64,000 nt of DNA. Origin: Mytilus galloprovincialis. Its lineage: Eukaryota; Mollusca; Bivalvia; Mytilida; Mytilidae. Below are positions 7,408 through 63,415 of this stretch, in pieces. Every line of letters begins with the position of its first letter. Within the stretch, counting starts at the first letter, position 1. A program made the translations under genes and the position numbers. Below the pieces are notes generated by a model, which had not been told where the DNA came from, searched no databases, and saw nothing but the letters and a program-made list of their open reading frames with translations. Location of the stretch: NCBI RefSeq assembly GCF_965363235.1, contig NC_134846.1:5957001-6021000 (forward strand). The letters are read 5' to 3'.

Positions 7408-8692
7408 TAGCTCACCTGGCCGAAAGGCCAAGTGAGCTTTTCTCATCACTTGGTGTCCGGCGTCCGTCGTCGTCCTGCGTTAACTTTTACAAAAATCTTC
7501 TCCTCTGAAACTACTGGGCCCAATTTAACCAAACTTGGCCACAATCATCATTGGGGTATCTAGTTTAAAAAATGTGTCCGGTGACCCGACCAACCAATAA
7601 AGATGGCCGCCATGGCTAAAAAGAGAACAAAGTGGTAAAATGCAGTTTTTGGCTGATAACTCAAAAACCAAAGCATTTAGAGCAAATCTGACATGGGGGT
7701 AAAATTGTTCATCAGGTCAAGATCTATCTGCCCTGAAATTTTGAGATGAATCGGACATTCTGTTGTTGGGTTGCTGCCCCTGAAATGGTAATTTGAAGGA
7801 CATTTTGCTGTTTTTGGTTATTATCTTGAATACTATTATAGATAGAGATAAACTGTAAACAGCAATAATGTTCAGCAAAATAAGATCTACAAATAAGTCA
7901 ACATGACCAAAATGGTCAGTTGACCACTTTAGGAGTTATTGCCCTTTATAGTCAATTTTTAACCATTTTTCGTAAATCTTAGTAATCTTTTAGAAAAATC
8001 TTCTCCTCTGAAACTACTGGGCCAAATTTAACCAAACTTAGCCATTATCATCATTGGGGTATCTAGTTTAAAAAATGTGTCCGGTAACTCGGCCAACAAA
8101 CCAAAATGGCCGCCATGGCTAAAAATAGAACATGGGGGTTAAATGCAGTTTTTGGCTTATAACTCAAAAACCAAAGCATTAAGAGCAAATCTGACAGGAA
8201 GTAAAATTGTTGATCAGGTCACGATCTATCTGCCCTGGAATTTTCAGATGAATCGGATAATCGGTTGTTAGGTTGCTGCCTCTAAATTGGTAATTTTAAG
8301 GAAATTTTGCTGTTTTTTTGTTATTATCTTGAATATTATTATAGATAGAGATAAACTGTAAACAGCAATAATGTACAGCAAAGAAAGAACTAAAAATAAG
8401 TCAGTATGACCAAAATAGTCAATTGACCCCCTAAGGAGTTATTGCCCTTCATAGTCAATTTTTAACAATTTTCTTAAAATTTGAAGATTTTCAATAACAT
8501 TTTCCACAGAAAGTACTGTTATAGATAGAGATAATTGTAAGCAGCAAGAATGTTTAGTAAAGTAAGATCTACAAACAAATCACCATCACCAAAACACAAT
8601 TATGTCATGAATCCATCTGTGTCCATTGTTTAATATTCACATAGACCAAGGTGAGCGACACAGGCTCTTTAGAGCCTCTAGTTTTTGGTCTC
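7408..8692 (+). mobile_element. Bivalve non-autonomous element with hairpin ends and an internal duplicated core
   Basis: The left end is a perfect-stem hairpin, AGCTCACCTGGCC and GGCCAAGTGAGCT around GAAA. The right end carries AGGCTCTTTAGAGCCTCTAG, also a hairpin. The core is about 510-530 bp repeated twice: CTTCTCCTCTGAAACTACTGG at about 7477 and again at about 7998, each followed by TTGGGGTATCTAGTTTAAA and ATGGCCGCCATGGC. It has no open frame. The same family is common in bivalves. It interrupts the duplicated block that is continuous at about 1560-1580, with flanking TTTTTAG and TTTTTGG as a possible 7-bp target duplication. Hairpin plus CTAG resembles Helitron ends, but a target duplication would argue against that; class unresolved. 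Confidence 0.75.
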
Positions 8693-9189: not shown

Positions 9190-12150
9190 TGAGAATCCCA
9201 AATTCGAAAAAGTGGTTCTCACGTAGTAGTGAAAAAAAGTGAAAAGTTTACGGACGCCAAACGCAGTGCATTCGATATGAAATCTTTCTGTCAGATGCCT
9301 CAACAGAGGAAAAGAATAACAGCATGATATGTTTTTATATTGACGATACAAAAAAATCAACAAACATAATGAACACTGTTTGGAAAAGTGAACATTTGTA
9401 AAGAAACTTTTTAAATGATGCTGTAAACTTTTCAAAATGTTATCCTATATATTTTTTTAGTCAGGCGTTTTCTCATGTATAAATCTGTAAGATGACCTAT
9501 AGTTGCTAATATCTCTACCAATTGACGGATAGTTCTCTCACTGGCAACCATGCCACTGACATCTGCCCATTCTATATACATCTGTAAACAAATGTGAGTT
9601 AGTTTAAGTACAAAATTAGAATTGCCTTCTACTATAATGTGACTTTATATTTTTCAAAGACATTATCACCCGTACATTCTAATATGACGTCCGTATTATG
9701 CGTTGTAAACAAGGCCGTGTTTTAATGAGCTCACAATATGTTTGACACATGCGCACACACTTACTGTTTTCATTCTCTTTATTTTCATTTATTACCCCAT
9801 GAAGTATACATTTTAGCTACTTATTTAAACTTTCATTTTATATTGTTTATCAAACAACATATAATATTTACCCTGCTATTAGTTTTTAAGCTAAAAAAAT
9901 ATAAAAATCAAATTAACATTCTACACGGAGAGGAAACGGCAACAGCCGAACAAGTCTAGGGTATTTTCGTAGGCTTCGACCTATAGAAATACTAAGATAT
10001 TCCAGAAAGTCTTTTAAAGAGTAGTAAATGACGCTACAGACTAAAACATGATAATGTCTGTATTAAATGGGTATCTATGAGAAAACCATGCAGATGGTGC
10101 TCCATGTAAGGTTGTTTGATTTTGATGAAACTTTGCTTAAATGATCAGGTTGACTTCATATGCAAGTCCAACAATTTTGATGGCCTTACATCAATGGTAA
10201 CCATGGTAACGGTAAGAATTTGTTATTTTCTCTTGTTCATATATAGATGCTCCTAATGAAATACAGATACTTCATAGATTTCTCAAATAATAATAAAGAC
10301 TATAATACTTCTGAGTGTTTAAATACTTTTATAGCATAGATAGCATGTGTATGAAGTATAAATCACATAATTTTATTAAACATAACAATAAATATAGAAA
10401 TTAAGGGGGTTGCCCAACACATAAAATGATTGAAAATCTGACTTTTTCATCTAGTTGCACTAAAACAGACACTTCAGCCCAAAAGACGCTTTAATTAGTA
10501 CTAATTTTTTTAAGAGCATTACATTGTATTTTGTTCAAAATATCTTAAAGGGAATTCGGTTGCAAATTAATTTTAAAGATAAATTTGGTCGTTCAGAGAG
10601 CCCCCCTTTTTTTTGTAATTTTACAATAAGATAATAGACAACCTCATATTTCCATGAAAAAAAAGCATTATAAAATAAGGAGATGAATTATATGGATTAT
10701 TACATGCCATTTAGGTAACTTGAGTTGGAAATTTCAAGTTGAAAAGATTTTTAGGTCACAAAAAATAATGATCATTAGGCTAAAAAAAAAGGAGGAGCAG
10801 CAAAAGACGATTTTTGAAGGTAAATTTTTTTCACTTAAAATTCCTATAGTAAACTAGTCCTTTTCACCTTTGAGAGTAAAATCAATTACTTTCTTCCTAG
10901 AGATCATTGCAACATGCAAAAAACTCTCAAAACTTCCAAAATCTCAGTCCATTTAAAATTTAAACAGATTTGATCAGTGACAGAGTTTATAATGCATTTT
11001 ATAATATATCATAAGTTTGCTCTTGTTTCAGTTATATAATTCTTGCAAAATGTCTCAATTTACAGTCTCTTAATTCTTAAGAGAATTAATTAATTTTTAA
11101 ATATTAATTTGTACAAATGTAAATTTTACTTCTTGATTAAAGCATTTCTATATTAATCAAGTACAAAGTATGTAAACTAACTACCACAATAGAGGCCATA
11201 AATAATAATTTTCATGGTACAAAGGTAGATAATCCAATAAAATATGAATTTTAAAAAAAATGAGTTTTTTTTCTTCAATTGAAGTGTTCTGTTCTAGATC
11301 TGGACCCTTTAAAAAGAATGCAAGATGGCAAGTTCTGAAACAATACAAAAAAAACACCAATGTAAGCTGATGAATAACATTGTAATCTAAATTCAAAATG
11401 AATCTATTAGAATTTAGAATGATGATTGTTAATGAGACAACTTTACAACAGAGTCAAAATAACATGGATTGAAGCAATTAAATGTCATTGTACAACCTTA
11501 AACAGTGTACAAAATCCACACCATTTAGTAAGAATGAATGCATAACAATGACAAAATATGGTTTAACCATTCTGTCCAAAATCATACATAAGAAACATCA
11601 ACATCATACAACAACTTCTACATAACTGGCTCCTGTCTAGATTATAACTATAGACATTAATCTTTTAAATAAATTTAAGCATTCAGAATATAGGTTCCAG
11701 TGACTAGCTTTTGGCTTGCTGCTGATGTACAAAAATACTTATATGTACTTACTGTATGCAAGATACATGCATATATACAATTTTGCATGCAGTTTTAAAT
11801 GATCTTGAATATAAAACTGAAGTCAGTTAGGTGTGAAATGTAGGTCAAACTTTGATTTTTTTTTTAAAGAAATGGACTTTCCAAACATGTGTATTTGGTT
11901 GTTCCTGACCCTTTATGATTTTTACTTTGATGTTATCTTTTAATATCAAATCTTTGTAAATCAACCAAATTAAATTGCAATAATTAGATTAAAATATTAC
12001 CAAGTTTACATCTATATTGAGTTAATTAATCATGACTTAGCAGCTAACAAGACACCAATTGTTGAATTAGTTAAGGAATTTATAGAACATGTAGTAATGA
12101 ATTGTTTCTTTACTGTCTAATATATATCATAACTAAGAATAAGATCAATA
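9190..12150. other. Non-genic stretch with repeat fragments
   Basis: A GATTGCCAATGAGAC-family copy occupies 9455-9595. At about 10170-10215 the sequence carries GGTAACCATGGTAACGG, a near-palindrome, within sequence that looks repetitive (10040-10260). From 10260 to 12150 I see only AT-rich sequence, without a splice-supported exon. Part of 11200-12150 is probably the 3' untranslated region and downstream flank of the minus-strand gene ending at 12154; no polyadenylation site was fixed. Confidence 0.4.
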
Positions 12151-12153
12151 AAA

Positions 12154-12849
12154 CTAATTGGTCAATCCAGTAACAATTTCTGATAAAACATTATTGTGTT
12201 CATTTGCAATTAAATGGCTCAGTACATTTTGAAGATCTTCATCATCTTCTTGATCATATTCTATTTTGACGACCTCTACAGATGGATTTTTGGACTTCTC
12301 TACTTTCTGTTTTTTGATGCACAAGTTTCCAAAGAAACTTCTTATTTGTTGATGGGACAACCACTCTGGTGGTGAGAAAAGTCTGTTTCCTTGTGAATCA
12401 ATCTCATTTCGCATTTGATTGGAAACTGTGTATGGACTTGTTTTTTTACCAGACAGTTCGCCAGCATTAAATAAAACTGCCAAATAGTCCTTCACTTTTG
12501 GAGAGAATCTCACAGCCTTTTTTCTTTTCTTCAAAGCATAACCATGCTGTTCTTTGATATTTGTTTTTGTTTGATCTTGCGATTCTTCAAAACCAACAGA
12601 AGAAAGCAAAGGTTGATTAAATCTAATATCTTGGCATTTGGCCGACCAAAGCCTTTTGGAAGTATCTATGATACTATCTTGCTTTTCATCATCAACAACA
12701 TGTTTACCGACAGACAGGTGTTTCAATAAATGGTCTTCTTTCTTGAACTCCAGTATGCAATTTGGATCAAAACATGGAAAACTTGCATTGTACCTCAATG
12801 TTTTGATGGAAGCTGGTTTAGTTTCTGGTATTTTGGAATCACCAAATGT
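12154..12849 (-). CDS. Exon 4 of the zinc-finger/RNase-H-like gene: C2H2 finger and basic tail
   Basis: After acceptor TTTTTTACAG the frame reads TFGDSKIPETKPASIKTLRY, then a zinc finger CFDPNC with KHLSVGKH. A basic stretch KKRKKAVRFSPKVKDYL is followed by LFNAGELSGKKTSPYTVSNQ, the motif SPPEWLSHQQIRSFFGNL, an acidic run EYDQEDDEDLQ and a stop at 12154. It is fully open, 231 residues. The RFSPKVKDYL and EWL-QIRSFF segments are the conserved C-terminal signature of the family as I remember it. Confidence 0.75.
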   Translation of the reverse strand, partial: TFGDSKIPETKPASIKTLRYNASFPCFDPNCILEFKKEDHLLKHLSVGKHVVDDEKQDSIIDTSKRLWSAKCQDIRFNQPLLSSVGFEESQDQTKTNIKEQHGYALKKRKKAVRFSPKVKDYLAVLFNAGELSGKKTSPYTVSNQMRNEIDSQGNRLFSPPEWLSHQQIRSFFGNLCIKKQKVEKSKNPSVEVVKIEYDQEDDEDLQNVLSHLIANEHNNVLSEIVTGLTN

Positions 12850-13555
12850 CTGTAAAAAATAATTATAAAAAGGTTATTTTCCTGAGACTTATCAAGTGGA
12901 GTTGAAAAAAAATCCTGAAAAGAAATAAATTATCAGCTGAGTACAAGATATGGTTCCTTTTAAATTCAACATTAGATTCTTAAAGAATAACTATTCTAAG
13001 AGTTCAAATCTAGAAAAAATTTCAACAAGTGACCAAACAAGACATTAATTTACGAATTTGCATACTGCATTAGTTGTTCTGCCAGTAGTCAGTAAACATA
13101 GTGCTGATCAACATCCGCTGACACCGTAGTTTTATAGATTCTCATAATCATATTATTTGACCTCATTAGGCGTTTTTATTGTTTATGTTTACTTCAGCGT
13201 CACTGATGATTATTTTTGAAACGAAATGCACTAGTGGGTTTACAATTTTAATCCTGGTATCTATGATGATTTATTTTGGTTGTTATCTCATTGACTCATA
13301 TATCCAATATCTGCCCTACATCATGTATGTCTTTAAACAGAAATGCTTTTAAAATAAAATTTTAAAAAGGCTTAAGCTTAGTTAAGTTTTAGGCTATCTA
13401 TAATGTGTTAGGAGAACATTCTACTTGACGATTGTTTGTGAATTCTATGAAACAGCCCTATTGTTTTAGTCTTTGGAGGTTTTGCTTCTAGATCTGTTAA
13501 TTGGTACCAGTTTTTTTTTTATCTACAGACATGACAGAAATAAATAAATTCTTAC

Positions 13556-15545
13556 CAAATTAGAATAAAATAAAGTTAACTTGTTGGAAATCCTGGTCAT
13601 GTCCGTTGCTTTGACAAGTTCCCCTCCAATGACATATGCCTTGTAAACTCTCATGCCTTCATCATCAAACTTGAAATTGTTGAACTGCGTAATTTGGAAA
13701 TTCTTTATCGTGCCACATAATAAAGGTTGTGTTTCACATGATACATTTACCACTGAAATATAAGTGTTTTTTATACCGCCATGGCTTTCAAGTGCTTCCT
13801 TCATCTGTTTACCATTGGTTATGTCATTTCCTTCATTTATATAGTTCAACATGTGAAGTCTACAAGTGCCTGTTCTTGAGTCACAGAGATCTTTGCCGGA
13901 TTGTGCTTCACTGAAATCATACTGTTTTACATCTAATGACAATTCATTACGAAACTTCCAAAGATATCCCATCAGTGGCAAGGCATGATAACAACCGGCA
14001 TTATCAGATCTTATATAAGCATGGTTTAGGTGTGGGTTAATTGATTTCAGTATTTTAAATGCACTGCTGAAAATTTGTGACACAATATGCAATCCTTGCT
14101 TCTGCTCCTCAACAATGTGTACCATTGAGTATATATCAAAGTTCTTATCATCATCATTTTCATCTCCCTCAGTTTGTGGCCTACAAACAAGAACACAAAT
14201 CATGTGCCAGCTGTTGCCCTGCTTCCCGAACCATTCACTCTGAGTTTCACGGAAAGTTTGTGGTAATTACTTCATGGCCCAATTAGCAATAATCAATACT
14301 TCATGAGACTGCAAGTTTTGTAGAATATCTTTTTTGCATGAATCTTGATTTACAGTTCTAATAGAATGATCCCTCCAAGCCCAATTTTTTTCTGTAGAAA
14401 CTAAGATGTCATGTTCAAGTTCTTCTTTCTCTTGAATTTCGATGTTTGAAAAATTTGATGTCATAACATTTTGGATTTCATCTCTGATTTGGTACATTCT
14501 ATCGCAAGGTTGACATATATTGCTGTGGGTATGCTCACAGCCTTTTTCCGATAATGCAAAGTGCATGCAATGTTGACTGCAATCACTTTCTGTAGACAAG
14601 TGACTTCTAAATTCATTCTTGAGATGTAATTTCAATGTGTAAAAGCTTTGAATAAGATCGGATACTTTACTTGTTTGCAAGCCTTTTGTACCAAGATTTG
14701 AAACAACTTTCTTTAAAGTATCAATACTTTCCATGCCATCACTTATGTAGTTGTCAAGGCCATGCAGGGATTTGAGTTGAGAGGCTGCGCAAGCTTTTAT
14801 GATCTTATACTGAGTTGCTCTACATGAAGGCAGTATGGTGTTATCCTTGCAATAGTTGTTGTATGCTGTTATAAGGAGAGATGCAATCATTGTTCTTATT
14901 ACCTTTGGTATCTTTACAGTCAAACCTGATCATAATTTAAGGTGTCTTGATCCAAATCCGATTACTTGGAGATAACATGGAGCAGAAATAAATTCAATGA
15001 AATAATGAATTTTCTGTTTTGAAAGGCGAAGGCGTGTGATCTTTGGTGGAGTAACATACTGTCCTGGTCCATGAGTTGAAGCAAATTTTGACTTGCATCA
15101 ATTTTGTAAATAGTCAACCCTTCTATAAAACTTAAAAGTTCAGATTTAGAATATTTCTCCACTATCAAAGACAAAATCTGGACTTTAGTTGTGTAATCTT
15201 CAGCCTTCTTGTAAGCATATATGATTGTGTCTGTAACTGCATCTTTTTGTTTGGTTTCAGCAGTCTTCAATTTCATGCTTTGGTACACTTGAGTCAGCAA
15301 TTCTATACCTTGAGATGGAGCAATGCTTTCACATACAATTTCACATGCTAACCTTGCTTGACGTATATAATACATTTTTGTAGAGTACTGTAGGTCTTCT
15401 AGGTTTAATGATGCTTGGGATTTGAGAGGTAAGTATTGCCCATGAGACATCATTTCCATTGCCCAGTTAAATGTATCTTTCTGTAACCTTTCGTCTTTGG
15501 ACCAATAAGAATAAACTGTTGTTTGTGATGAAAACATATCAGGGT
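13556..15545 (-). pseudogene. Exon 3 of the zinc-finger/RNase-H-like gene (1,990 nt, broken)
   Basis: Bounded by TATTTTCAG at 15546 and TTTG/GTAAGA at 13555. It covers the helical region (FNWAMEMMSHG, TTKVQILSLIVEKYSKSEL), then IPKVIRTMIASLL, the knuckle with CSQHCMHF, CEHTHSNICQPC, and the catalytic-like core. Length modulo 3 is off by one, matching the single frameshift near 15084-15090, where the frame carrying FASTHGPGQYVTPPK takes over. TGA at 14930-14932 and TAA at 14267-14269 interrupt that frame. The TAA follows WAMK, where relatives I recall continue FLP or YLP. Confidence 0.75.
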
Positions 15546-15959
15546 CTGAAAATAGCAAAAATAAAATACATGACTATTTTGAAGGAAAACAGAATCAGAG
15601 AGCTTACACAACTACTGCTGAGGTACTTAAATAGAGGTGGTAATTTTTATCACATGTGGACCTATTCAGAAAATGGGTAAAAAAAAAATGCTCCGCAGGG
15701 CACAACTTTATACAACGGCAGAGGGAGAACCCTGAACAGTTGGGGCATGACAGTATGGACACAACATTCAAGCTTGATACAGCTCTGAATTTGGATTGTG
15801 ATTAAATAATTGACATAGCATAGGTTTCTGATACAGAATGTAATTGGTCTAAGAACTTAACTGGATGTGCCAAAGCGACACGAATGGCCCTGTCTCAAAA
15901 AGTTGAAAAATTGGCAATTTCAATAACACATGTGGACACAAATATGATGGTAATCACAT

Positions 15960-16515
15960 AAAAAAATCAGCACAAAATCTGGAGGCGTATAGAAAAATGT
16001 TCATATAACTGTGATTTTCAACAATTTTCAAAGTTGTAAACCCTTAAATTTGTCAAAAGTTTGCAGAGCAGAACCAAACTCAAACTTGATCTGTTACTCA
16101 TCATGAGTAACTCACATACCAAGAATCTGGCCAATATTTGAAAGCATTAAGAAAATAGGTCTGTATGACTGTGACTCTCAAAAATTTATCAAGGTCAGAA
16201 GCCTGAAATTACCCTAAAATCAGCCAAGCGGAACGAAACTTAAACTTTACTTGATCTGTAACTCATCATGAGTAACTCACATACAAAAAATCAGCCCAAT
16301 ATCTGAAAGCGTTTAGAAAAAAAGTCTGTTTAACTGTGATTTTCAACAATTTATCAAAGTCAATAGCCCATAATTTCGGCAAAAGTTAGCAAAGCGGATC
16401 AAAACTTAAACTTGATCTGTAACTCATCTTGGTTAACTCACATGCCAAAAAGTATCCCAATATCTGAAAGCATTTAGAAAAAAATCTGTATAACTGTGAT
16501 TTTCAACAATTTATT
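15960..16515. repeat. Tandem array, about 163-bp unit, 3.3 copies
   Basis: The segment CTGTAACTCATCATGAGTAA recurs at about 16090, 16255 and 16418, and TGTGATTTTCAACAATTT at about 16008, 16172 (degenerate), 16335 and 16497. Each unit holds the palindrome ACTCATCATGAGT. It lies in intron 2 of the zinc-finger/RNase-H-like gene. Similar arrays are familiar from other bivalves. Confidence 0.75.
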
Positions 16516-17130
16516 TTTGTTGAAATCAAACAAGGTTTAATTTTAAACCCTGGTTTGGACCAACTTGAAAATTAGGCCCATAATCAGAAATCTAAATAAG
16601 CGCTCAGGTTTGGCATATCAAAAAACCCAAATAAATCAAGTTTTGATGAAATCAAACAAAGTTTAATTTTCGATCCTTTGGACCTCACTGCGGACCAATT
16701 TAAGAACGGAACCCAAAATCCAAAAATTTATAACATGTTTAGATTCAGATTATTCATGTTAGTTAAGAACTCCAGAAAATAAACCATTTATGTAAGGTAT
16801 AAGAAGTCTTGTTTTGGCCAAAATGCTTATTAGGACCCCCTTTTAGGCCCTTAATTCCTAAACTGATGGGCCCATAATCCCAAAAATCAATTGCAACCTT
16901 ACTTTTGGTAGTTTCAAACGTTGTGTTTAAATTTAAGAGATCAATTCACTACAACTAAAGTTCATGTCCAGAAATTAAGTGTCTTCGGACAAGGACAAAG
17001 TTATACCAATAAACAACATTTTTGCAGTCGTCTAAAAAATACTCAATTAGATTTACCATAATAAAGAACCCCAAAAGTATTCCCTATTAAATTTGTAATA
17101 AGAATGTTGGCACCTGTACCATTACAGGTA
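16516..17130. repeat. Bivalve dispersed repeat with an internal about 130-bp duplication
   Basis: GAAATCAAACAAGGTTTAAT at about 16520 recurs as GAAATCAAACAAAGTTTAAT at about 16650, each followed by a TTTGGACC segment and a CCCAAATAA or CCAAAAATT stretch. It directly follows the 163-bp array, and the two are probably parts of one larger element. No coding. Confidence 0.55.
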
Positions 17131-17334
17131 GAAAAAAATAACAGGTGCATTCTTTTAGATATAATCAATTGAAAATTTGTCAGGAAATGACTTTCTCTAA
17201 AGTTTTCATGCATTTAACATCCACACAGGTTTTTCTTTACAAAAGGTTTGCAAAAATTACAAGAGTTTTGTGAGAATTTCAAATATGCGTTTAACTATAC
17301 ATATGTATATGCAGGTGAGATAACAATTGTTTAC

Positions 17335-17394
17335 CTGAATCCACAGACATTGCTAATTCTAGGCATTCTTCATATATGCTTTCAGACACCAGTT
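17335..17394 (-). CDS. Exon 2 (60 nt) of the zinc-finger/RNase-H-like gene
   Basis: Acceptor TTTTTTTACAG and donor GTAAAC bound exactly 60 nt that keep phase 1 on both sides and read ELVSESIYEECLELAMSVDS. Joined to exon 3 the next residues are DPDMFSSQTTVYSYW. Such a short in-phase exon between two strong splice sites is good support for the gene model. Confidence 0.65.
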
Positions 17395-17399
17395 CTGTA

Positions 17400-19470
17400 A
17401 AAAAACAAGTTGCTTTCTTTAAAAAAAGAAAAGCAATACATGAACCTAAGAGGTCACCAAAAGATTGTTGCTGAATTTGTGTTCGCTTTTGAATTGAAAT
17501 AATTGACTGTGAATATAAGAAGCCAGTTGAAAGTTTATATTTACAGCTTCTATTTGAATAGTTATTTTAAAGCTCGACTATTTTATTTATTACTTGGGAA
17601 TGTACATAATTTTTCCGATTATAACCCTTTGGCAAATCCTAATTTCTACTAACCGGATGACTTATGCAAATTGCACAAACCTACTCAGTTTGCTTTATAA
17701 TGTGGAATTCTGGATGCATTTATCTATCATATCTTTAAATTTTGTTTCCTACATGAATGCCTTTATATACTCAACTCGTATTTGAAGCTGTCTTTACTCA
17801 TGGTAGATGTTGTATGCGGTGAAACCTGTGGCATACAATTGATTGGGACCTCTTATGAAGCGACTGATTTTGGTCTCATAAAACATCTCAAATGTTTTAA
17901 ACGGATTTCCTGATTTTACTTAAATCAATTCAAACAGTGAAACTTAGTTTTGCCGAAGAATTTCTTAATTCAGAAGTTTATGAATACCTGTACACACTTT
18001 CAAAATAACCAATTTATATAAAAAGGTATATAGATATAAAAAGATACCAGAAATAAAATGATGTACGCCAGACACGAGTTCAGTAGACACAAAAAAGCAC
18101 CATGCCAGTGACGCTCGAATGAAAAAAGTTAAAAGGCTTAATACATTACAAAGTTATGGAATCTATTCCTTGTGTAGACAATCCTTAGCTTTTCGAAAAG
18201 GTCAAAGTTTATAATAGGACAGTGACTCAAAAAAGAAACAACTCGAGGTCAGAATACCGTTAGAAATGATGACCGTGCTTGAAAGTCATATGTGAAGCTC
18301 TTTCTTCCGTGTCCTGAATTTAGATAACAAAAACGAAAATAAGCTTTCACGAATGAATTTAATAGTATTGCATGCAAGTAGTATCTTAGCGCACGAAATA
18401 GTAAATAGAAAGCATCTCACTGATACCAAGGAAAAGAATACGCATTTGCATCATCACATATCTTAATCTAATAGTTGAATTCGAATGTCAAACGGACTAC
18501 ATTAAATGTTTTGACTCCGGATTTATTGACATTTTATCCGGAATTTTTGAGAACGCAAACCGATAGTGTGCTTTTGAAATGTGATCTATAATGTGAATGC
18601 ATCAAGAGGTGTAGGATAGTTGGTCAACACGTGGAATACAATTTTCAAAACCGTACCATATAGTACAAATATGTAGATGCTATACGGTTAAACTATTTAA
18701 ACAAACAAACAAAAATTGAATTAAAACTTTATAAAAAACTAACGTTCCTGTTATTATTTTATTTTCAAATTCTTTTGAATATACATTGTATATAATATCA
18801 ATAAACACGAACGTCAAGTATTTACGGATGGACATTTATTTATCGAATGAATCTACTTTTAAATTCTAACATTCCACTATGTGAATATCATATTACTATA
18901 CAAAATATAAGCAAAGACTTTTAAATCCATACTAAAACGGTATGAAATAATCAACATTATGGTTGTACATTTTTTTAATTAAATTTTGTTGTGATTATTG
19001 TAAATTATTTTTACGCTTGTTGTGAGTTGCACGGATTTAAAATCATGCTTTATGAATTGAAAACACACAAGTATTTTTATTCACGGCCGATTAAAATTTA
19101 AATATTTACTAAATTTATCGTATTTTCCGTTTTATGGATATATTACAATACAAAAAATAAATAATAATTACTCATAAAACCTAAATACTAAAATGGTATG
19201 AAATAATTAACGTAGAAATATAATGATTATTGTTTATAAACATTTTTTTTGTAGGATGCAAGAATTTATTTACATTTAATTTTTATGTTTTCTTTACAAA
19301 AGAATATTTAAAAATACCACAGCAGAGTATCTTGTAATATAAAATACTTATTTCTTAATTGCAACTCTGAAAATATTCAGATTTCAATCATTGTTAGTTT
19401 CTTCAGAAACATAAATACAGTATATATTTTGTATATATTTCTTTGATTCCGATTGAATACTTTTGATAAG
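17400..19470. other. Intron 1 sequence, mostly unrecognised
   Basis: Holds an ACGCGCGT-family fragment at about 18030-18240 (GATGTACGCCAGACACGAG, CAGTGACGCTCGAATG). Otherwise it is AT-rich intron without recognisable exons on either strand. Confidence 0.4.
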
Positions 19471-19475
19471 AATAT

Positions 19476-20073
19476 TGTTATGATATTATAATTATTGTAT
19501 TTATTTATGTTGGCCTGATTTGTGTTGTGTGGCCTGATAGTTGTTTACAGAATAATCTTAGAACTGTGCAGTTTAGAAATCACTGGAACAATTACAGAAT
19601 GATTGGAACTTTCCAGAATGATCCTAATAAAAGATGCATTATATAAACTTCTACATTTTACTAGAAACTTCTGTTGTAACTTTCTAGGATGTTCCATTAT
19701 AGACTGTTCTAGAATCTTCCATGACAAATATATATATATACAGACACTAAAGTTACACGCTCACTCTTGCACTTGGACTTAGACGTCGATAGACATTAAT
19801 ATTCATAGCATTTGGATTGACATTTTTATTCTACAAACAACATCATACTGGATTGTGACCTTAGTAGTGAACGTGATATTCAGATTGGATTCCTAGAAGA
19901 TTTCCGGATACAGATAAAGATAAAAGATTGGACTCATATTTTGATAGTTAAGTTGACAGTAATATTTGTGTAATACTTCTTGTAAACTTTTGTATAATAA
20001 ATATTGTTGAATTTTACTATTGATTTGTGTCTTTTGTTGGCTACAATTTAAAAGGCGATTTCTGGCCGTAACA
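19476..20073 (+). mobile_element. Solo LTR of a probable Gypsy-type retrotransposon
   Basis: About 598 bp, from TGTTATG to CGTAACA, with TG...CA ends, inverted TGTTA/TAACA termini and ATAT on both sides as a 4-bp target duplication. TATATAAAC near 19640 and AATAAA near 20000 sit where the promoter and polyadenylation signal of an LTR belong. No internal region or second LTR is present, so it is a fossil solo LTR that looks whole. It carries several heat-shock-element-like GAA/TTC arrays. Family assignment is inference; clear target duplication and ends suggest a fairly recent insertion. Confidence 0.55.
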
Positions 20074-20631
20074 ATATTATCTTTCTTTTTTCCGATCTAA
20101 TACTAATATGTTAACCAGAATCTTCTCTCCCATAAGTCTATGATGAAATACACACTCAGTATCCCGTGGTTAAATCTTCAAACATAATTAGTTCACATGT
20201 TATCGAGACAACATACAATACCACGTTATAATTGACCCAGATACACACAGTGTACTGTGGTCGTTTTAAAACAAATATAATTGTGTCGTCAAGGGCCATC
20301 AAGGGACCGTATCAAAGACGTAGATAACAACCTGTTAAAACCTGTATAAATGACCGAAAACTTTCGAGACGTTCCGAGAATTTTATTCTGACTTCCGGCC
20401 GAGAGATATCGAGTGACCCATAGACACATCCAAAACTCGCCAATATATAAGCATGAACCCCTCAGGGGGTTCATGCAATAAATAATAGTAAATTATAATG
20501 CAATATTAGCAAATCATGCTCGAACTGTAAAGGAAGACATGATCACAATATAATATTTTGTCTCTTGACACTCACACTACATCTTTATATTTATATGAAA
20601 CAGAAACAGCCATAAAATCTTCAGATAAAAC

Positions 20632-20941
20632 AAAACACTGATTTCTTGTATAAACATTATATTTTTTTATAAAATAAAAACAAACTTTTATATTGTTGCT
20701 GGTACATGTAGTATTTATTTCCCACTCAAATATATTTCTTGTATCAAGTGCATCACACTAATCAGACTTTTTTATGTTGATATGAAAAAATATTAGAAAA
20801 CTGACAACATTGTTAATGTTGTGAGGTGCCCTTATTGCACATTATGAAGTAACATATGTATACATGTATTATTTACAAATATAATACAAACAAAACACTG
20901 ATTTCTTGTATAAACATTATATTTTTTATAAAATAAAAACA
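20632..20941. repeat. 55-bp direct repeat, two copies 255 bp apart
   Basis: ACAAAACACTGATTTCTTGT followed by ATAAACATTATATTT and an A/T-rich tail occurs at 20632-20686 and again, almost identical, at 20885-20941, differing mainly in T-run length. The near identity implies a recent local duplication. Confidence 0.75.
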
Positions 20942-21196
20942 AACCTCTTCTAGGAAATCGTTTTATCTTGAGAAAATAACTTTTTTGTTCTTAAAGGATT
21001 TATCTTAGTTTCCATATTAAAATAGAAAGCTTTGGATAATTCTTTGACATAAAGAAGCATAGTGAAATAATTACAAAAAAAGCTTGAGGAAAGCACAAGT
21101 CTAGTATTTGAATAAAAAACGTTTCTTGTTTATACAAGTCCTCATTAAATTTAAGGTTCCAATATGAATAATTGTTTTCATTAAACTGTTTTTTAG

Positions 21197-21391
21197 CTGA
21201 TTAAAATGTAATTTCGAATTTGATTGCGGATCAAAAGATTTGACTAAGACTGCAGCAACAACACCATCTCAGCCTAGTCAACTCAACACACCCTGTTACC
21301 AGTGTCCAGATTGTGATAAGACGTACAAGTAAATTGCTGGGTTCAGATCTAGAGGTCATGTACGACAAAAGCATGGCATTACAAGTATAAA
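21197..21391 (+). pseudogene. C2H2 zinc-finger exon fragment with an in-frame stop
   Basis: After TTTTTTAG the plus strand reads, from about 21217, CGSKDLTKTAATTPSQPSQL, then CYQCPDCDKTYK, a TAA stop at about 21330, IAGFRSRGHVRQKHG, and a possible donor AAAAG/GTATTT. The C-x2-C and H-x4-H ligands are present, but the spacing between them is two residues longer than usual. It lies inside intron 1 of the minus-strand zinc-finger/RNase-H-like gene. It may be a fragment of a second member of that family or of another C2H2 protein. Confidence 0.45.
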
Positions 21392-21889
21392 AGGTATTTG
21401 GTTTTTTCACATCTATATATACATATATTAATGCGTGTTCTTTACTGAGTGCTTTTAAAACCTAATGAGACAAGATGTGGTATGATTGCCCATGAGCTTA
21501 CTTTTATTGTTTGACAAGTTTGTGCAAGCTTTTCACTTTTCCTAAGGAATGTGTTGAACAATTTGTTTGGGTATCTCAGCTCCTTAATATATACATAAAT
21601 TTCCAAAAAAGCCGTAGGTTTTGTTGTGCTTGAAAGGCAGATTTGCAATGCGAATGCTTATCAATTATGAATGTTTTTTTTTTGTCCCTTGAATATTTTA
21701 CTATGGAAAATCTTAAACCTCAATCATGACAAGTTCTTTGGTATATATTTTAAGTCTTCATATCCAAGTTTAATAGATTCAATGACTAACAAGCAGGAGA
21801 CTGTAATTCATTGGTTGCCGTTTGTTTATGTATTACATATTTGTTTTTCATTCACTCATTCTTTGTACATAAAAAAAGACCATTTGTTT

Positions 21890-22055
21890 TTTGTTTGAAT
21901 TTTGACCTTTTATAGCTGACTATGCGGTATTCACTTTGCTCCTTGTTGAAGCCCATACAATCCTATAGTTGATAATTTCTTTGTCATTTGGTCTCTTGTG
22001 GATAGTTGTCTCGTGTGCAATCATACCACATCTCCTTTTATATTGCTAGCTTTTA
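21890..22055 (+). repeat. GATTGCCAATGAGAC-family repeat
   Basis: GCTGACTATGCGGTATTCAC through GTCATTTGGTCTCTTGTGGA to CAATCATACCACATCTCC, a typical copy in plus orientation, inside intron 1. Confidence 0.6.
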
Positions 22056-22352
22056 TGAATGTGATAAATTGCAGCATAATGAGATAAATTTGCTTCATTT
22101 AGTTGCAAATATAAATATTGGTTCTTTGATCTCTGGTGAAAATAAGTCTCATTGGCAATCATAATGTGTTTCAGGTTTTTATTTTATGCATAGTTTTGAC
22201 TGCTATACAATTCTTGCAGTGATGGATAAGCGTTTTCCATTTGTGATGATACCAATTAGACTATTTATTGAATATGATATAAATAACAAACAAACTGGTA
22301 TATTGCTATGCTCTCTTTAATACAGAAAGCAGTTATTAATACTGCAGTGTGT

Positions 22353-22432
22353 ATATATAAAACATACCAATATAAAATAATATCATACATTATATAAAAC
22401 ATACCAATATAAAATAATATCATACATTACAG
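22353..22432. repeat. Perfect 40-bp tandem duplication
   Basis: TATAAAACATACCAATATAA continuing to ATCATACATTA occurs twice back to back without a difference that I can see. Confidence 0.8.
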
Positions 22433-22727
22433 AAGTATTTATATACAAAAGAATAAAGCTTAAGCATGGAAAACTTTTAATGAAATATTTTTTCTAAACA
22501 TTCATTAATGAATATAATGCATACTGTAAAATTATATAAATAAACACAGCAGTTCTATATTTAATATTAGGCCTAAAGGATCAAAAAGGCTAAATGTACA
22601 GATTGACCAGAGAGAGTAAATTTGTCATCATTTTATGAACTATTAATATTCCATATTTGGTTAGATATACTGTTCCCAGATTTATAATAATTGAATTGAA
22701 TTCATCCATAATGTGACGGCGTTAATA

Positions 22728-22930
22728 TTATGTGGTATGATTGCCAATGAGACAACTCTCCACAAGAGACCAAAATGACACAGAAATTAACAATTATAGA
22801 TAACGGTACGGTCTTCAACAATGAGCAAAGCCCATACTGCAGTCAACTATAAAGGCCCAGAAATGACAATGTGAAACAATTCAAACGAGAAAACTCAGGG
22901 CCTTATTTATATTAAAAAAATGATAGTGGG
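22728..22930 (-). repeat. GATTGCCAATGAGAC-family repeat, long copy
   Basis: TGTGGTATGATTGCCAATGA, then GACCAAAATGACACAGAAAT, AATGAGCAAAGCCCATACTG and AATTCAAACGAGAAAACTC, the most complete copy in the window. It is opposite in orientation to the copies at 21890 and 24600. Confidence 0.7.
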
Positions 22931-23272
22931 ATCCACACCATCCCCCTAACCTGGCACAGTGGTAGGGTACTTGTACATTCCAACAACAAAAGGACACTTG
23001 ATACAATATAAGCATGATACATATCTGCATAAGTTTGTTCATATTTTTTTTTTAATAAAAGTAGCAATTGGAATCATAGGGAAAAGACCCATTGCAAATA
23101 TGAAGTAAGGCAAACAACTAATACCCCAAAATATTCCCCCCTTTTTTTTGAAGATATATGGACAGTGTTTTTATCTTTTTATATATCATATATATATGAA
23201 TTTCTAGCTGATGAGAGTATTTTTTGTGGTGTCATTTTGCTTTTCTCTTCATTAATTTCGAAATAATCTTAC

Positions 23273-23675
23273 CAGAACCAACTGAAACACTCAAGTTAAA
23301 CTTGACCCAGATCTCTCTGCTTTGGATAAAGTTCACTCCCTTTGCTACTTTTGAAGATTTTGAAAGGTCATGCAGTGAATGGCAACATGTTCTTTTTCTT
23401 CTTGTCCACTGCAAACCAAACTCTTGTCTATGTTTAAGGCAAATATGTTTTGAAAAGTTTGAGAGTCTCAGGCCCAGTCCGACACAGTTGAGGATTAGCA
23501 ATGATTCTGGTATTGTAATGTCTGTGCCACATTTAAAGAATCTAAAATGATTGGTGGTATCTTTTCTGCATTTTCTTAAAATATATAGGTTGTCTGATTC
23601 ACAGTTGTCATCGAAAATACAACTTTCTCCTTTCTCAGCCATTATCCATCCTTGAAAGTATGTCCTTCTGCTCAT
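23273..23675 (-). CDS. Exon 1 of the zinc-finger/RNase-H-like gene
   Basis: This exon codes 134 residues plus one base and ends at a TCTG/GTAAGA donor. Two ATGs compete: MSRRTYFQGW at 23675, or MAEKGESCIFDD eleven codons later, which looks more like the family start. Cysteines and histidines are arranged as CIFDDNC, KCR, FFKCG, LNCVGLG, then HICLKHRQEFGLQW and RTCCHSLHD, a probable zinc-binding treble. The end KFNLSVSVGSG joins in phase 1 to exon 2. The frame is open throughout. The plus-strand open frame over the same bases is a shadow. Confidence 0.7.
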
Positions 23676-24599
23676 TTGTTTATTTCCCTCCTTCTAATCT
23701 AAACAGTAAATCTACCTTGTGTTTGGAGAGTTTTACAAAGGGAAGTAATCGAAGGTATATTTTTTTCAGATTTTTAATTTTTATTCCAAAAAATTAAAAT
23801 TAATTTGCAACAGAATTCCAGTTCAGGAATTTTATTTCATTTTGAGTGACTTTTGAGGATTTATGGACATTTGAAGTGCAGGCTACAATCAAATTTGTGA
23901 AAAAAAACTTTTGTTCAATAGAAAATACTAACAAAAATAAAAGGCGAAATAAGATTCAGCTTGCACAAAATTTTTTAGTTTAAAATCTAAATTTTAAGGC
24001 AAAACAAAAAGATTTGACATGTAATACTAGGAACAATTCAATAAAAAAAAATTTAAAAATGTCCATTTTCATTAAGATTTCAAGCAAATTTGGTACCAAA
24101 ATAGAATTACCCTGTATTTACTGTATTCGCCCTATATTGTCATTTTTCAACCATGGATCTATTAGATGTACTTAATACTTTGTCAGGAACCCAAAATCAG
24201 TTGGAATCTCCACCACCCCTTTCATGATTTTTTTTGGATTTTGCATGGTTTTCTGCCGGTAGACACCCATTTAAGGAGATTTATAATTTTTCAGAATGAT
24301 TCAGAATGATTCTAGCATATTTTTGTATAGAAGAACAATTCCAAATTTAAACTTATTATTTTTTCTTAATTATCAAATGATTCTATTTCCTAAATTATTA
24401 AATTGATTAAAAGATACATAATTTCCTTTTGCAAATTGAAAAAAGTACATTGTATATATGAATAAACTAAATATCAAAAAGTGTATTAAACGGGAAAAAG
24501 CATTTTGCAATGCTTTAGTGTGAAAGTTATATTGAGCGTAAAAAAAACCCCACATTCTGTATGTATGTGCCTGTCCCAAGTCAGGAGCCCGTTATTTGT

Positions 24600-37883: not shown

Positions 37884-38767
37884 GAGTGACGAAAGATACC
37901 AAAGGGACAGTCAAACTCACAAATCGAAATTAAACTGACAACGCCATGGCTGAAAATGAAAAAGACAAACAGACAAACAATAGTACACATGACACAACAT
38001 AGAAAACTAAAGAATAAACAACACGAACCCCACCAAAAACTTGGGGTGATCTCAGGTGCTTCGGAAGGGTAAGCAGATCCTGCTCCACATGTGGCACCCG
38101 TCGTGTTGCTTATGCAATAACAAATCCGGTAAATAGTCTATTCGGTAGGTCACATTCATGAAAGGGAAGGGGATTGTAGTTACGACGTAAGGAACATATC
38201 CGATATCATTTGTGAAACGGTTATTTCATAACGGTCAACCATCTCGTGATGGCGTCCGTAAAATTTACAAAGGGATGATTTCAACTTCACCATTTGGAAC
38301 TCTTGGTGTAATAGCTTCCTTGTGAGCAGCAACCCTCTATCAAGAAAATCATGATAGGAAATGCAAGCACGTGAATATCGTATCAATTGGGAGATATATA
38401 CACCGTATGCAGGTGCTGCTGGAATGTTGCTACTTAGAAATGGAAAGTTCACAATTGGAAAGCTGAAATCATCTCTTTTGTCGTAAAGTTTTGTTTTCAA
38501 CCGACCGTCAGTGTCAATTTCTAGATGTAAGTCAAGATATGAGGCTGCCGTAACTGTATCTGTAGTATCCTTTTTCTCTATAGCTAGTGCGATGGGATAG
38601 ATACGTTCCACATAGTCACCAAATTTTGAATTATTTAGTGAAAGAACATCATCTATATAGCGGAAAGTAAAGTAAAAGGATATTGCTAACTTCTTGTCTT
38701 TCTTCCTAAGAAGTTCCTGCATGAAGTCAGCCTCATAATAATAAAGAAATAAGTCGGCAAATTATGG
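37884..38767 (-). mobile_element. 5'-truncated non-LTR-type retroelement with reverse transcriptase
   Basis: The minus strand carries the C-terminal half of a reverse transcriptase, from FADLFLYYYEADFMQELL through FTFRYIDDVLSLNN (the YIDD catalytic box), then ASYLDLHLEIDTDGRLKTKL, NIPAAPAYGVYISQLIRY and KFYGRHHEMVDRYEI, ending at 38180. An open frame of 180 codons remains. A 3' untranslated region of about 300 bp follows, down to a fixed end GGTATCTTTCGTC at about 37884. The class may be Penelope-like; I cannot settle it. Truncation near 38767 and four other copies sharing only the 3' end fit target-primed insertion. Confidence 0.8.
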
Positions 38768-48829: not shown

Positions 48830-49440
48830 ACAAATGGATGTGACGTACAATGATTTGGTGGTATTTCACCTGTATGATAAATGATCAATGAGGTCGAGAT
48901 ATCATTGCATAATAAATGGTCAATGAGATCGAATAATTGTTGTATGATATATGATAAATGAACTGGAGGTATCATTGAATTATATTAATCAAACAATGCG
49001 AGGTATAATTTTTATCAAAGATAAATGTGCTCGAAATATCATTGTGTGCTGACTGACAACGTACCTCCAGGTATCATTGTGTGCTTACTGGTGACTGACC
49101 TTGAGGTAATATTGTGAGCTTACTGGCTACTGAACCCGAGGTATCATTGTGTACTAACTGTTGACTGACGTTGAGGTATAATGGCATTGTAGATGATGAA
49201 TGGGTTCGAGATATTTAGTCTCATGATGAATGGCCAATACACTTGATCATCATTATATAATATATGTGTATAGAGCTCGATCTCTCATTATATGGTGAAT
49301 GATCTATGAACTTGATGTATGATAAATAATGAAGGCGCTCAAAGTTTTATTGCATGAATAATCATAAATGAGCTCAATGAATATGTATCATAGTATTATA
49401 AATGAACTATGAACTCGACATATCTTTGGCAAATAATTCT
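48830..49440. repeat. Degenerate minisatellite, about 40-50-bp unit
   Basis: The phrases GAGGTATCATTGTGTGCT, GAGGTCGAGATATCATTG, TGATAAATGAACTGGAGG and ATGATAAATGATCAATGAG recur about a dozen times in variable order and spacing. A unit close to ATCATTGTRTGATAAATGA plus GAGCTCGA seems ancestral. In intron 1 of the paralogue. Confidence 0.6.
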
Positions 49441-62725: not shown

Positions 62726-63415
62726 GAAGAGGGACGAAAGATACCAAAGGGACAGTCAAACTCATAAATCTAAAACAAACTGACAACGCCATGACTAAAA
62801 ATGAAAAAGACAAACAAACAACAGCACACATGACACAACATAGAAAACTAAAGAATAAACAACACGAACCCACCAAAAAACTAGGGGTGATCTCAGGTGC
62901 TCCGGAAGGGTAAGCAGATCCTGCTCTACATGTTGCACCCGTCATGTTGCTTATGTGATAACAAATCCGGTAAATAGTCTAATTCGGTAGGTCACATTTA
63001 TGAAAGGGAAGGGGATTGTAGTTACGACGTAAGGAACATATTCGATATCATTTGTGAAACGGTTATTCCATAACGGTCAACCAACTCGTGATTGCGTCCG
63101 TAAAATTTACGAAGGGATGATTTCAACTTCACCATTTGAAACTCTTGGTTTTATAGCTTCCTTGTGAGCAGCAACCCTCTAGCAAGAAAATCTTGATAGG
63201 AAATGCAAGCACGGGACTATCGTATCAATTGGGAGATATATACCCCGTCTGCAGGTGCTGCTGGAATGTTGCTACTTAGAAATGGAAAGTACGTTCACAA
63301 TTGGAAAGCTGAAATCATCTCTTTTGTCGTAAAGTTTGTCAATTACTAGGTGTAAGTCAAGATATAATGCCGACTTAACTTTATTTGTAGTATCCTTTAT
63401 CTCTAGCTCGAATAG
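62726..63415 (-). mobile_element. Second large copy of the reverse-transcriptase element
   Basis: It runs from GAAGAGGGACGAAAGATACC (3' end) through GGGAAGGGGATTGTAGTTAC to the region matching NIPAAPAYGVYISQ-like sequence, parallel to 37884-38500. It is shorter at the 5' side and more decayed than the first copy, so no open frame of use remains. Confidence 0.75.

What the first reader, a model, noticed from the sequence alone, without database searches (positions are those of the whole stretch)
12154..23675. Intron-bearing member of an uncharacterised zinc-finger/RNase-H-like family
The core has the blocks NWAMK, SDNAGCYH and FSEAQSGKDLCD that look like a DDE/RNase-H fold, between an N-terminal Cys/His domain and a C-terminal C2H2 finger with a RFSPKVKDYL tail. 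Four phased exons across 11.5 kb are unusual for a mobile transposase and suggest either a domesticated family or a transposon that carries introns.
Basis: partly seen in the sequence, partly recalled or inferred. Interest (0 to 1): 0.75.

Follow-up and report, generated by a model that had tools for sequence, protein, structure and literature searches.

The report
Dead intron-bearing TTAA DNA transposon copy
A broken copy of a large jumping gene that cuts and pastes itself into TTAA sites sits here; intact, recently mobile relatives are scattered through the same animal genome.

Summary
The exons lie inside a 14,212-bp element (window 10063-24274, minus strand) with TTAA at both ends and short terminal inverted repeats. 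A 94%-identical empty copy of the insertion site on another contig holds a single TTAA and no scar. The family is multicopy, with 99-100% identical dispersed copies, open frames without stops, and hundreds of matches to its terminal repeats. The core D(WAMK), SD(NA.C) and K..CD is conserved in the members aligned, with a zinc-like cluster before it. The window copy is dead: a frameshift, two stops and N for the first catalytic D. Three exons are visible, not four; one reported junction is damage. Introns in such transposases are not unusual (Dada, Ginger1). No Pfam, NCBIfam, PHROG or PDB sequence family matches convincingly. The superfamily is unsettled: Pfam's piggyBac model and the Kolobok C/DxxH signature are not met. 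Sola leads by elimination; a new superfamily is not excluded.

The parts
10063..24274 (-). whole transposon copy, 14,212 bp including both TTAA
   Evidence: Shared ends with L042 (both ends) and L043 (5' end), TIRs, TTAA at both ends; empty site elsewhere
24271..24274 (.). TTAA target-site duplication, 5' side of the gene
10063..10066 (.). TTAA target-site duplication, 3' side of the gene
24242..24274 (-). 5' terminal inverted repeat (with TTAA), ending in AAACCATGCA
   Evidence: alignment score of the two termini without TTAA not reached in 5000 shuffles
10063..10092 (+). 3' terminal inverted repeat (with TTAA), ending in AAACCATGCA
23273..23642 (-). exon 1: N-terminal Cys/His domain (CxxH-x14/15-C-x4-H); start codon inferred
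   Evidence: relatives aligned; GT donor at 23272; near-constant distance from a TIR in other copies
15546..23272 (-). intron 1 (GT-AG)
13556..15545 (-). exon 2: N-terminal part, HC..CxHxH..CxxC cluster and DDE/D core; broken in this copy
15084..15092 (-). region of the frameshift relative to the C5 relative (about 15088)
14930..14932 (-). in-frame stop TGA inside exon 2
14282..14284 (-). first catalytic position reads N instead of D
14267..14269 (-). in-frame stop TAA directly after NWAMK
12850..13555 (-). intron 2 (GT-AG)
12154..12849 (-). exon 3: C2H2 finger and RFSPKVKDYL region, to the stop codon
16004..16514 (.). 165-bp tandem array (3.2 copies) inside intron 1

Best explanation
The finding is a dead copy of a cut-and-paste DNA transposon. 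SHOWN: a 14.2-kb element with TTAA at each end and inverted termini of about 30 bp; precise insertion at one TTAA; many relatives with the same kind of ends; an acidic core that is conserved in relatives and broken here. INFERRED: the exons, which have GT-AG borders in phase, are spliced into one transposase of about 1,000 aa. Its zinc-binding parts recognise the termini, whose inner AAAACCATGCA-like block recurs in several subfamilies. An RNase H fold holding D431, D516 and D557 (or E/D548) of the L038 protein cuts the element out and joins its ends across a 4-bp stagger at TTAA; repair leaves TTAA on both sides. Relatives that seem to lack a transposase (about 406 bp, and elements of about 6 kb) would be moved in trans. 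This copy has a frameshift, two stops and N for the first catalytic D, so it makes no working enzyme but keeps both ends.
For: Ends, TSD and TIR. Single-TTAA empty sites for 2 of 3 insertions tested: window site 94% over 301 of 304 bases and a group A site 99% over 304 of 304. The third matched only its own two flanks. Of 27 boundaries read as element ends, 24 carry TTAA; two of these are one duplicated site. TIR patterns of three subfamilies (window, A, D) occur 126, 347 and 58 times, with no match to the reversed patterns. Among the places listed (100 of 126, 100 of 347, 58 of 58), 33, 31 and 11 convergent pairs lie within 20 kb, with no divergent and no same-strand pair. Protein family: 149 matches among 150 scored of 282 candidates. 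Dispersed copies 99-100% identical, some with 503-residue frames free of stops. D431 in 9 of 10 rows with data, the exception being the window copy; D516 and D557 in 11 of 11. dN/dS of window versus its nearest relative 0.06-0.16 over three stretches. Exon 1 lies 601-662 bp (20 cases) or about 1109 bp (2 cases) inside a TIR in 22 of 49 matches.
Against: No fold was predicted, so the RNase H core rests on motif order and a crude propensity plot. No transcript shows that exon 1 is spliced to exon 2; 27 of 49 exon-1 matches had no listed TIR nearby, although only three subfamilies' TIRs were compared and two of the lists were cut. A fourth TIR pattern (group E) gave 14 places, 2 matches to its reversed control and no pair within 20 kb; the 5' ends of groups E and B were not reached, and that of group C was not found in 1.5 kb. 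Group B 3' ends carry TTAA in 1 of 3 copies and one group D 5' end lacks it. Other similarity breaks (left ends of L013/L015, L016/L017, L018, L024) carry no TTAA; I read them as truncations or internal repeats and left them out of the 27. The closest relative, on C5, shows only exon-2 homology in the 21.5 kb read and no window-type terminus.
Confidence: 0.93

Rival explanations
1. A domesticated host gene derived from a transposase, kept at this locus for a cellular role.
For: Purifying signature in the coding sequence; several exons.
Against: The copy has two stops, a frameshift and a lost catalytic D; it still has both TIRs and TTAA and an empty paralogous site. The purifying signal is expected of any transposase lineage before a copy dies.
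Confidence: 0.03
2. A member of the Sola superfamily (DDD transposase, 4-bp TSD), possibly Sola3.
For: Of the Repbase superfamilies listed in PMC9587614, I know of piggyBac, Kolobok, Ginger and Sola as makers of 4-bp duplications (selection partly recalled); the first two fail tests here, and Ginger would be expected to hit a Pfam integrase model (recalled). Sola is described with DDD transposase, 4-bp TSDs, TIRs of 11-1124 bp and some elements over 15 kb (passage of PMC10741241). Recalled, from no call: Sola3 prefers TTAA.
Against: No reference Sola sequence could be compared. Sola2 elements of amoebae have AWWT duplications (passage of PMC3627910). A mollusc survey found few Sola3 ORFs, 64 in all (passage of PMC10294476), whereas this family is numerous here.
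Confidence: 0.6
3. A divergent Kolobok element.
For: TTAA duplication; termini of groups A, B and E begin 5'-RR (GA); elements of 6.8-13.9 kb with TTAA ends are known in Xenopus (passages of PMC6004289). A CxxH stands a few residues after D557 in 5 of 11 members.
Against: The C/DxxH signature between the second D and D557 is absent in 11 of 11 members. No THAP domain in Pfam scans. The cysteine cluster lies before the first D, not between the second and third. Terminal bases AT (window), GT (D) and CA (C) are not RR.
Confidence: 0.1
4. A piggyBac element.
For: TTAA specificity and scar-free empty sites look the same.
Against: No Pfam piggyBac match in 9 of 9 members, while PF13843 finds 119 matches in the same genome, none listed in the window element. 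There are 40-42 residues between D2 and D3 here; piggyBac has D346 and D447 (passages of PMC7351741). The termini seen lack CCYT.
Confidence: 0.03

Closest known systems
Sola superfamily of DNA transposons
   Same: 4-bp target duplication, three acidic catalytic positions, variable TIRs, elements that can exceed 15 kb
   Different: no sequence comparison was possible; TTAA preference for any Sola group rests on recall; zinc-like clusters and introns could not be compared
piggyBac
   Same: TTAA target, single TTAA at empty sites, DDD-type triad
   Different: no Pfam match, 40-42 residues between D2 and D3 instead of about 100, termini not CCYT, intron-bearing gene in a 14-19 kb element
Kolobok
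   Same: TTAA target, several-kb elements with short TIRs, zinc-binding motifs, MITE relatives
   Different: no C/DxxH signature between D2 and D3, no THAP domain found, zinc-like cluster before the first D, mixed terminal bases
Dada and Ginger1
   Same: DNA transposons whose transposase genes contain introns (passages)
   Different: other target sites (recalled); cited only to show that introns in transposases are known

Membership tests
cut-and-paste TIR DNA transposon (DDE/D type) | terminal inverted repeats | tested here: met
cut-and-paste TIR DNA transposon (DDE/D type) | target-site duplication of fixed length and precise empty site | tested here: met
   TTAA at 24 of 27 boundaries read as ends; empty sites for 2 of 3 insertions tested
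cut-and-paste TIR DNA transposon (DDE/D type) | three conserved acidic residues | tested here: met
   D431 in 9 of 10 with data, D516 and D557 in 11 of 11
cut-and-paste TIR DNA transposon (DDE/D type) | RNase H fold | not tested
Sola | 4-bp target-site duplication | tested here: met
Sola | transposase homologous to reference Sola1-3 | not testable with these tools
   no Sola reference sequence or model found among the tools; founding paper not held
Sola | DDD triad | tested here: inconclusive
   third residue may be D557 or E/D548
Kolobok | TTAA target | tested here: met
Kolobok | C/DxxH between second D and last acidic residue | tested here: not met
   none between D516 and D557 in 11 of 11 members; a CxxH just after D557 in 5 of 11. 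Assumes D557 or E/D548 is the last catalytic residue
Kolobok | 5'-RR termini | tested here: not met
   window AT, group D GT, group C CA; groups A, B and E do begin GA
Kolobok | THAP domain in the transposase | tested here: not met
   Pfam, no THAP at E up to 1
piggyBac | PF13843 transposase domain | tested here: not met
   0 of 9 members; positive control 119 matches in the same genome
piggyBac | TTAA target | tested here: met
piggyBac | 5'-CCYT termini | tested here: not met
   termini listed; the CC[C/T]T rule is from a passage of PMC2872659
domesticated transposase gene | intact reading frame and loss of TIRs | tested here: not met
   stops, frameshift, both TIRs present

The most novel reading that the evidence does not exclude
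The family is an undescribed superfamily of eukaryotic TTAA-specific transposons. Its marks would be a compact D-D-D core without the piggyBac insertion domain or the Kolobok signature, three zinc-like modules, and an intron-rich gene in elements of 14-19 kb, recently mobile in this genome.
Probability: 0.2. Interest if true: 0.65.

Novelty: new member of a known kind. Interest (0 to 1): 0.36.

Why it matters
It turns an uncharacterised protein family of this genome into a transposon family with defined ends, target site and likely catalytic residues. Annotators can then stop counting these ORFs as host genes, and hundreds of terminal-repeat matches, including about 406-bp MITEs, can be assigned to a source. 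Members with 99-100% identical dispersed copies and no stops suggest recent movement. A TTAA-specific system unlike piggyBac in sequence would let one ask whether scar-free TTAA transposition arose more than once.

Tried and rejected
Pfam, NCBIfam and PHROGs on parts of the gene and on one to nine relatives, and PDB sequences by phmmer and profile: only weak matches, best E 0.014 for one member. Viral contigs and prokaryote genomes: no relative confirmed; no exact TIR core in viral contigs. These collections are the wrong kind for an animal element, so the negatives say little. Papers: no hit for six core peptide strings; the listings and passages I saw gave no reference Sola motifs (searches; passages 27, 28, 48-50, 74, 128). 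The hairpin idea for the termini had no support. A bacterial promoter scan of the 5' end gave chance-level hits. The 5' end of group C was not found, and the group E terminus had no partner. The 100%-identical pair L022/L023 shares flanks, so I count it as one duplicated site, not two insertions.
Full report
WHERE. The window is C9:5957001-6021000 of an unnamed 1.385-Gb genome in 331 contigs. Repeat units in the window and the fact that nearly all hits fall on contigs C1-C14 suggest a mussel such as Mytilus; this is recall, not a result.

CHECK OF THE OBSERVATION. Comparison with the closest relative (L002 on C5, 81% identical in protein over 444 aligned residues and 75% over another 154) shows that what looks like two exons at 15.5-14.3 kb is one exon broken by a frameshift near 15088 and a TGA at 14932-14930. 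A TAA follows NWAMK, and N replaces the D seen in the 9 other members with data. Three exons remain: 23642-23273, 15545-13556 and 12849-12154, with GT-AG borders and compatible phases. The start codon of exon 1 is inferred.

FROM GENE TO ELEMENT. A search of the genome with the core gave 149 matches among 150 scored of 282 candidates, many with open frames of 500-889 residues. These are matches, not elements: some elements give several. Twenty stretches were fetched. They fall into dispersed groups that are 92-100% identical over pieces of 2-10 kb and then stop sharply. Group A has complete elements of 18,897 and 16,198 bp with TTAA on both sides and the inverted terminus GAGGCTGTCCA. The exon-1 relatives on C13 (both ends) and C11 (5' end) gave the ends of the window element: TTAA at 24271-24274 and 10063-10066 and the terminus ATGGGTRTCTA...AGAAAACCATGCA. 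L042 on C13 is an internally deleted relative of 2,960 bp with the same ends. Without TTAA, the two window termini (36 bases each) align with score 35; the best of 5000 letter shuffles reached 26. The C5 relative shows only exon-2 homology to the window element in the 21.5 kb read and no window-type terminus.

PRECISE INSERTION. Joined flanks of three insertions were searched in the genome. The window site has an uninterrupted paralogue on C10 (94%, bases 4-304 of 304) and one group A site has one on C8 (99%, 304 of 304); both hold one TTAA and no extra bases. The third matched only itself. An empty paralogue fits either 'never inserted' or 'precisely excised'.

TERMINI GENOME-WIDE. TIR patterns of the window, A and D subfamilies match 126, 347 and 58 places; the reversed patterns match none. 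Of the places listed (100, 100 and 58), convergent pairs within 20 kb number 33, 31 and 11; divergent and same-strand pairs number zero. Window-type pairs span 2.8-10.1 kb, 21 of 33 of them 5.9-6.6 kb. Group A pairs fall into 13 of 8.3-19.5 kb and 18 of 155-411 bp, 17 of these 401-411 bp. The window's own 5' end has three extra bases and is not among the listed matches. Against this, a pattern for the group E terminus gave 14 places, two matches to its reversed control and no pair within 20 kb, so group E has no known 5' end. In eight ends of five subfamilies that I chose because they carry TTAA, an AAAACCATGCA-like block follows in seven, not in E. Boundaries read as element ends carry TTAA in 24 of 27 cases: group E 8 of 8 (one pair is a duplicated site), C 2 of 2, A 5 of 5, D 3 of 4, window 2 of 2, L042 2 of 2, L043 1 of 1, B 1 of 3. 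Four other breaks of similarity (left ends of L013/L015, L016/L017, L018 and L024) carry no TTAA. I read them as truncations or internal repeats and did not count them.

THE PROTEIN. In 11 aligned members, D516 and D557 (L038 numbering) are invariant and D431 is present in 9 of 10 with data, the window copy being the exception. Position 548 is E or D in 11 of 11. An HC..CxHxH..CxxC cluster before D431 is kept in 9 of 9 with data. D1-D2 has 82-93 residues between in the ten rows that reach D1, D2-D3 40-42 in all 11. A propensity plot puts strand-like stretches before D431 and ahead of residue 548, and only a short one before D516; that is weak evidence. Exon 1 encodes CxxH-x14/15-C-x4-H in 7 of 7. 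In 22 of 49 exon-1 matches a TIR lies 601-662 or about 1109 bp outside it in the same orientation; for the window subfamily I compared only eight TIR places picked and the window's own 5' end. Window and L002 differ with dN/dS 0.16, 0.13 and 0.06 in three stretches. This is selection on the lineage before the copy died.

INTRONS. Breaks in tblastn alignments, which I read as introns, vary inside the family: L038 has the whole protein after exon 1 in one frame; the window copy, C and D have a break before the C2H2 part; A has a further one near residue 310; B and E have others near 320, 380-400 and, in E, 438, and none before the C2H2 part. Introns in transposases are known from Dada and Ginger1 (passages only).

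WHAT KIND. Known TTAA makers were tested. Pfam's piggyBac model finds 119 matches in this genome but none of nine members. The Kolobok C/DxxH signature is absent between D516 and D557 in 11 of 11, although a CxxH stands just after D557 in 5 of 11, and no THAP was found (definitions from part 1 and passages of PMC9587614 and passages of PMC6004289). Sola fits the general description (passage of PMC10741241) but could not be compared by sequence. Hence: a TTAA-specific DDE/D transposon family, most likely Sola-like, possibly a new superfamily. Absence from print was searched only in the held open-access library.

LIMITS. No fold, no transcript and no second animal genome.

Noticed in passing
window 38180-38761, minus strand: 193-aa ORF with YIDD and LDLHL that looks by eye like a reverse-transcriptase fragment, perhaps Penelope-like; no Pfam or PDB sequence match at E up to 1.
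   Followed up: partly
window 7479-8472: Two copies, 90% alike in the two pieces reported, of a roughly 500-bp unit in direct tandem (spacing 503).
   Followed up: no
window 49037-49179: 35-bp tandem array of about 4 copies, beside another 35-bp array at 48877-48984.
   Followed up: no
window 37969-38439 and 62810-63281: Two stretches, 92% alike over 172 bp and 95% over 300 bp, in direct orientation: probably two copies of one dispersed repeat, with weaker copies elsewhere in the window.
   Followed up: no
L002:85-1012: Two overlapping ORFs that look by eye like a PIF/Harbinger-type nuclease lie next to the C5 relative, perhaps a nested transposon.
   Followed up: no
G000, group A termini, e.g. 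C1:14752972-14753377: About 406-bp convergent TIR pairs with group A termini: a MITE family probably moved by this transposase.
   Followed up: partly
G000, e.g. C2:111082212-111088694: Elements of about 6 kb with window-type termini; exon-1 relics with stops lie inside a few window-type termini; their contents could not be read.
   Followed up: partly
L022 and L023 (C1, about 75 kb apart): Two copies identical over 9.8 kb including flanks: segmental duplication or assembly duplicate.
   Followed up: no
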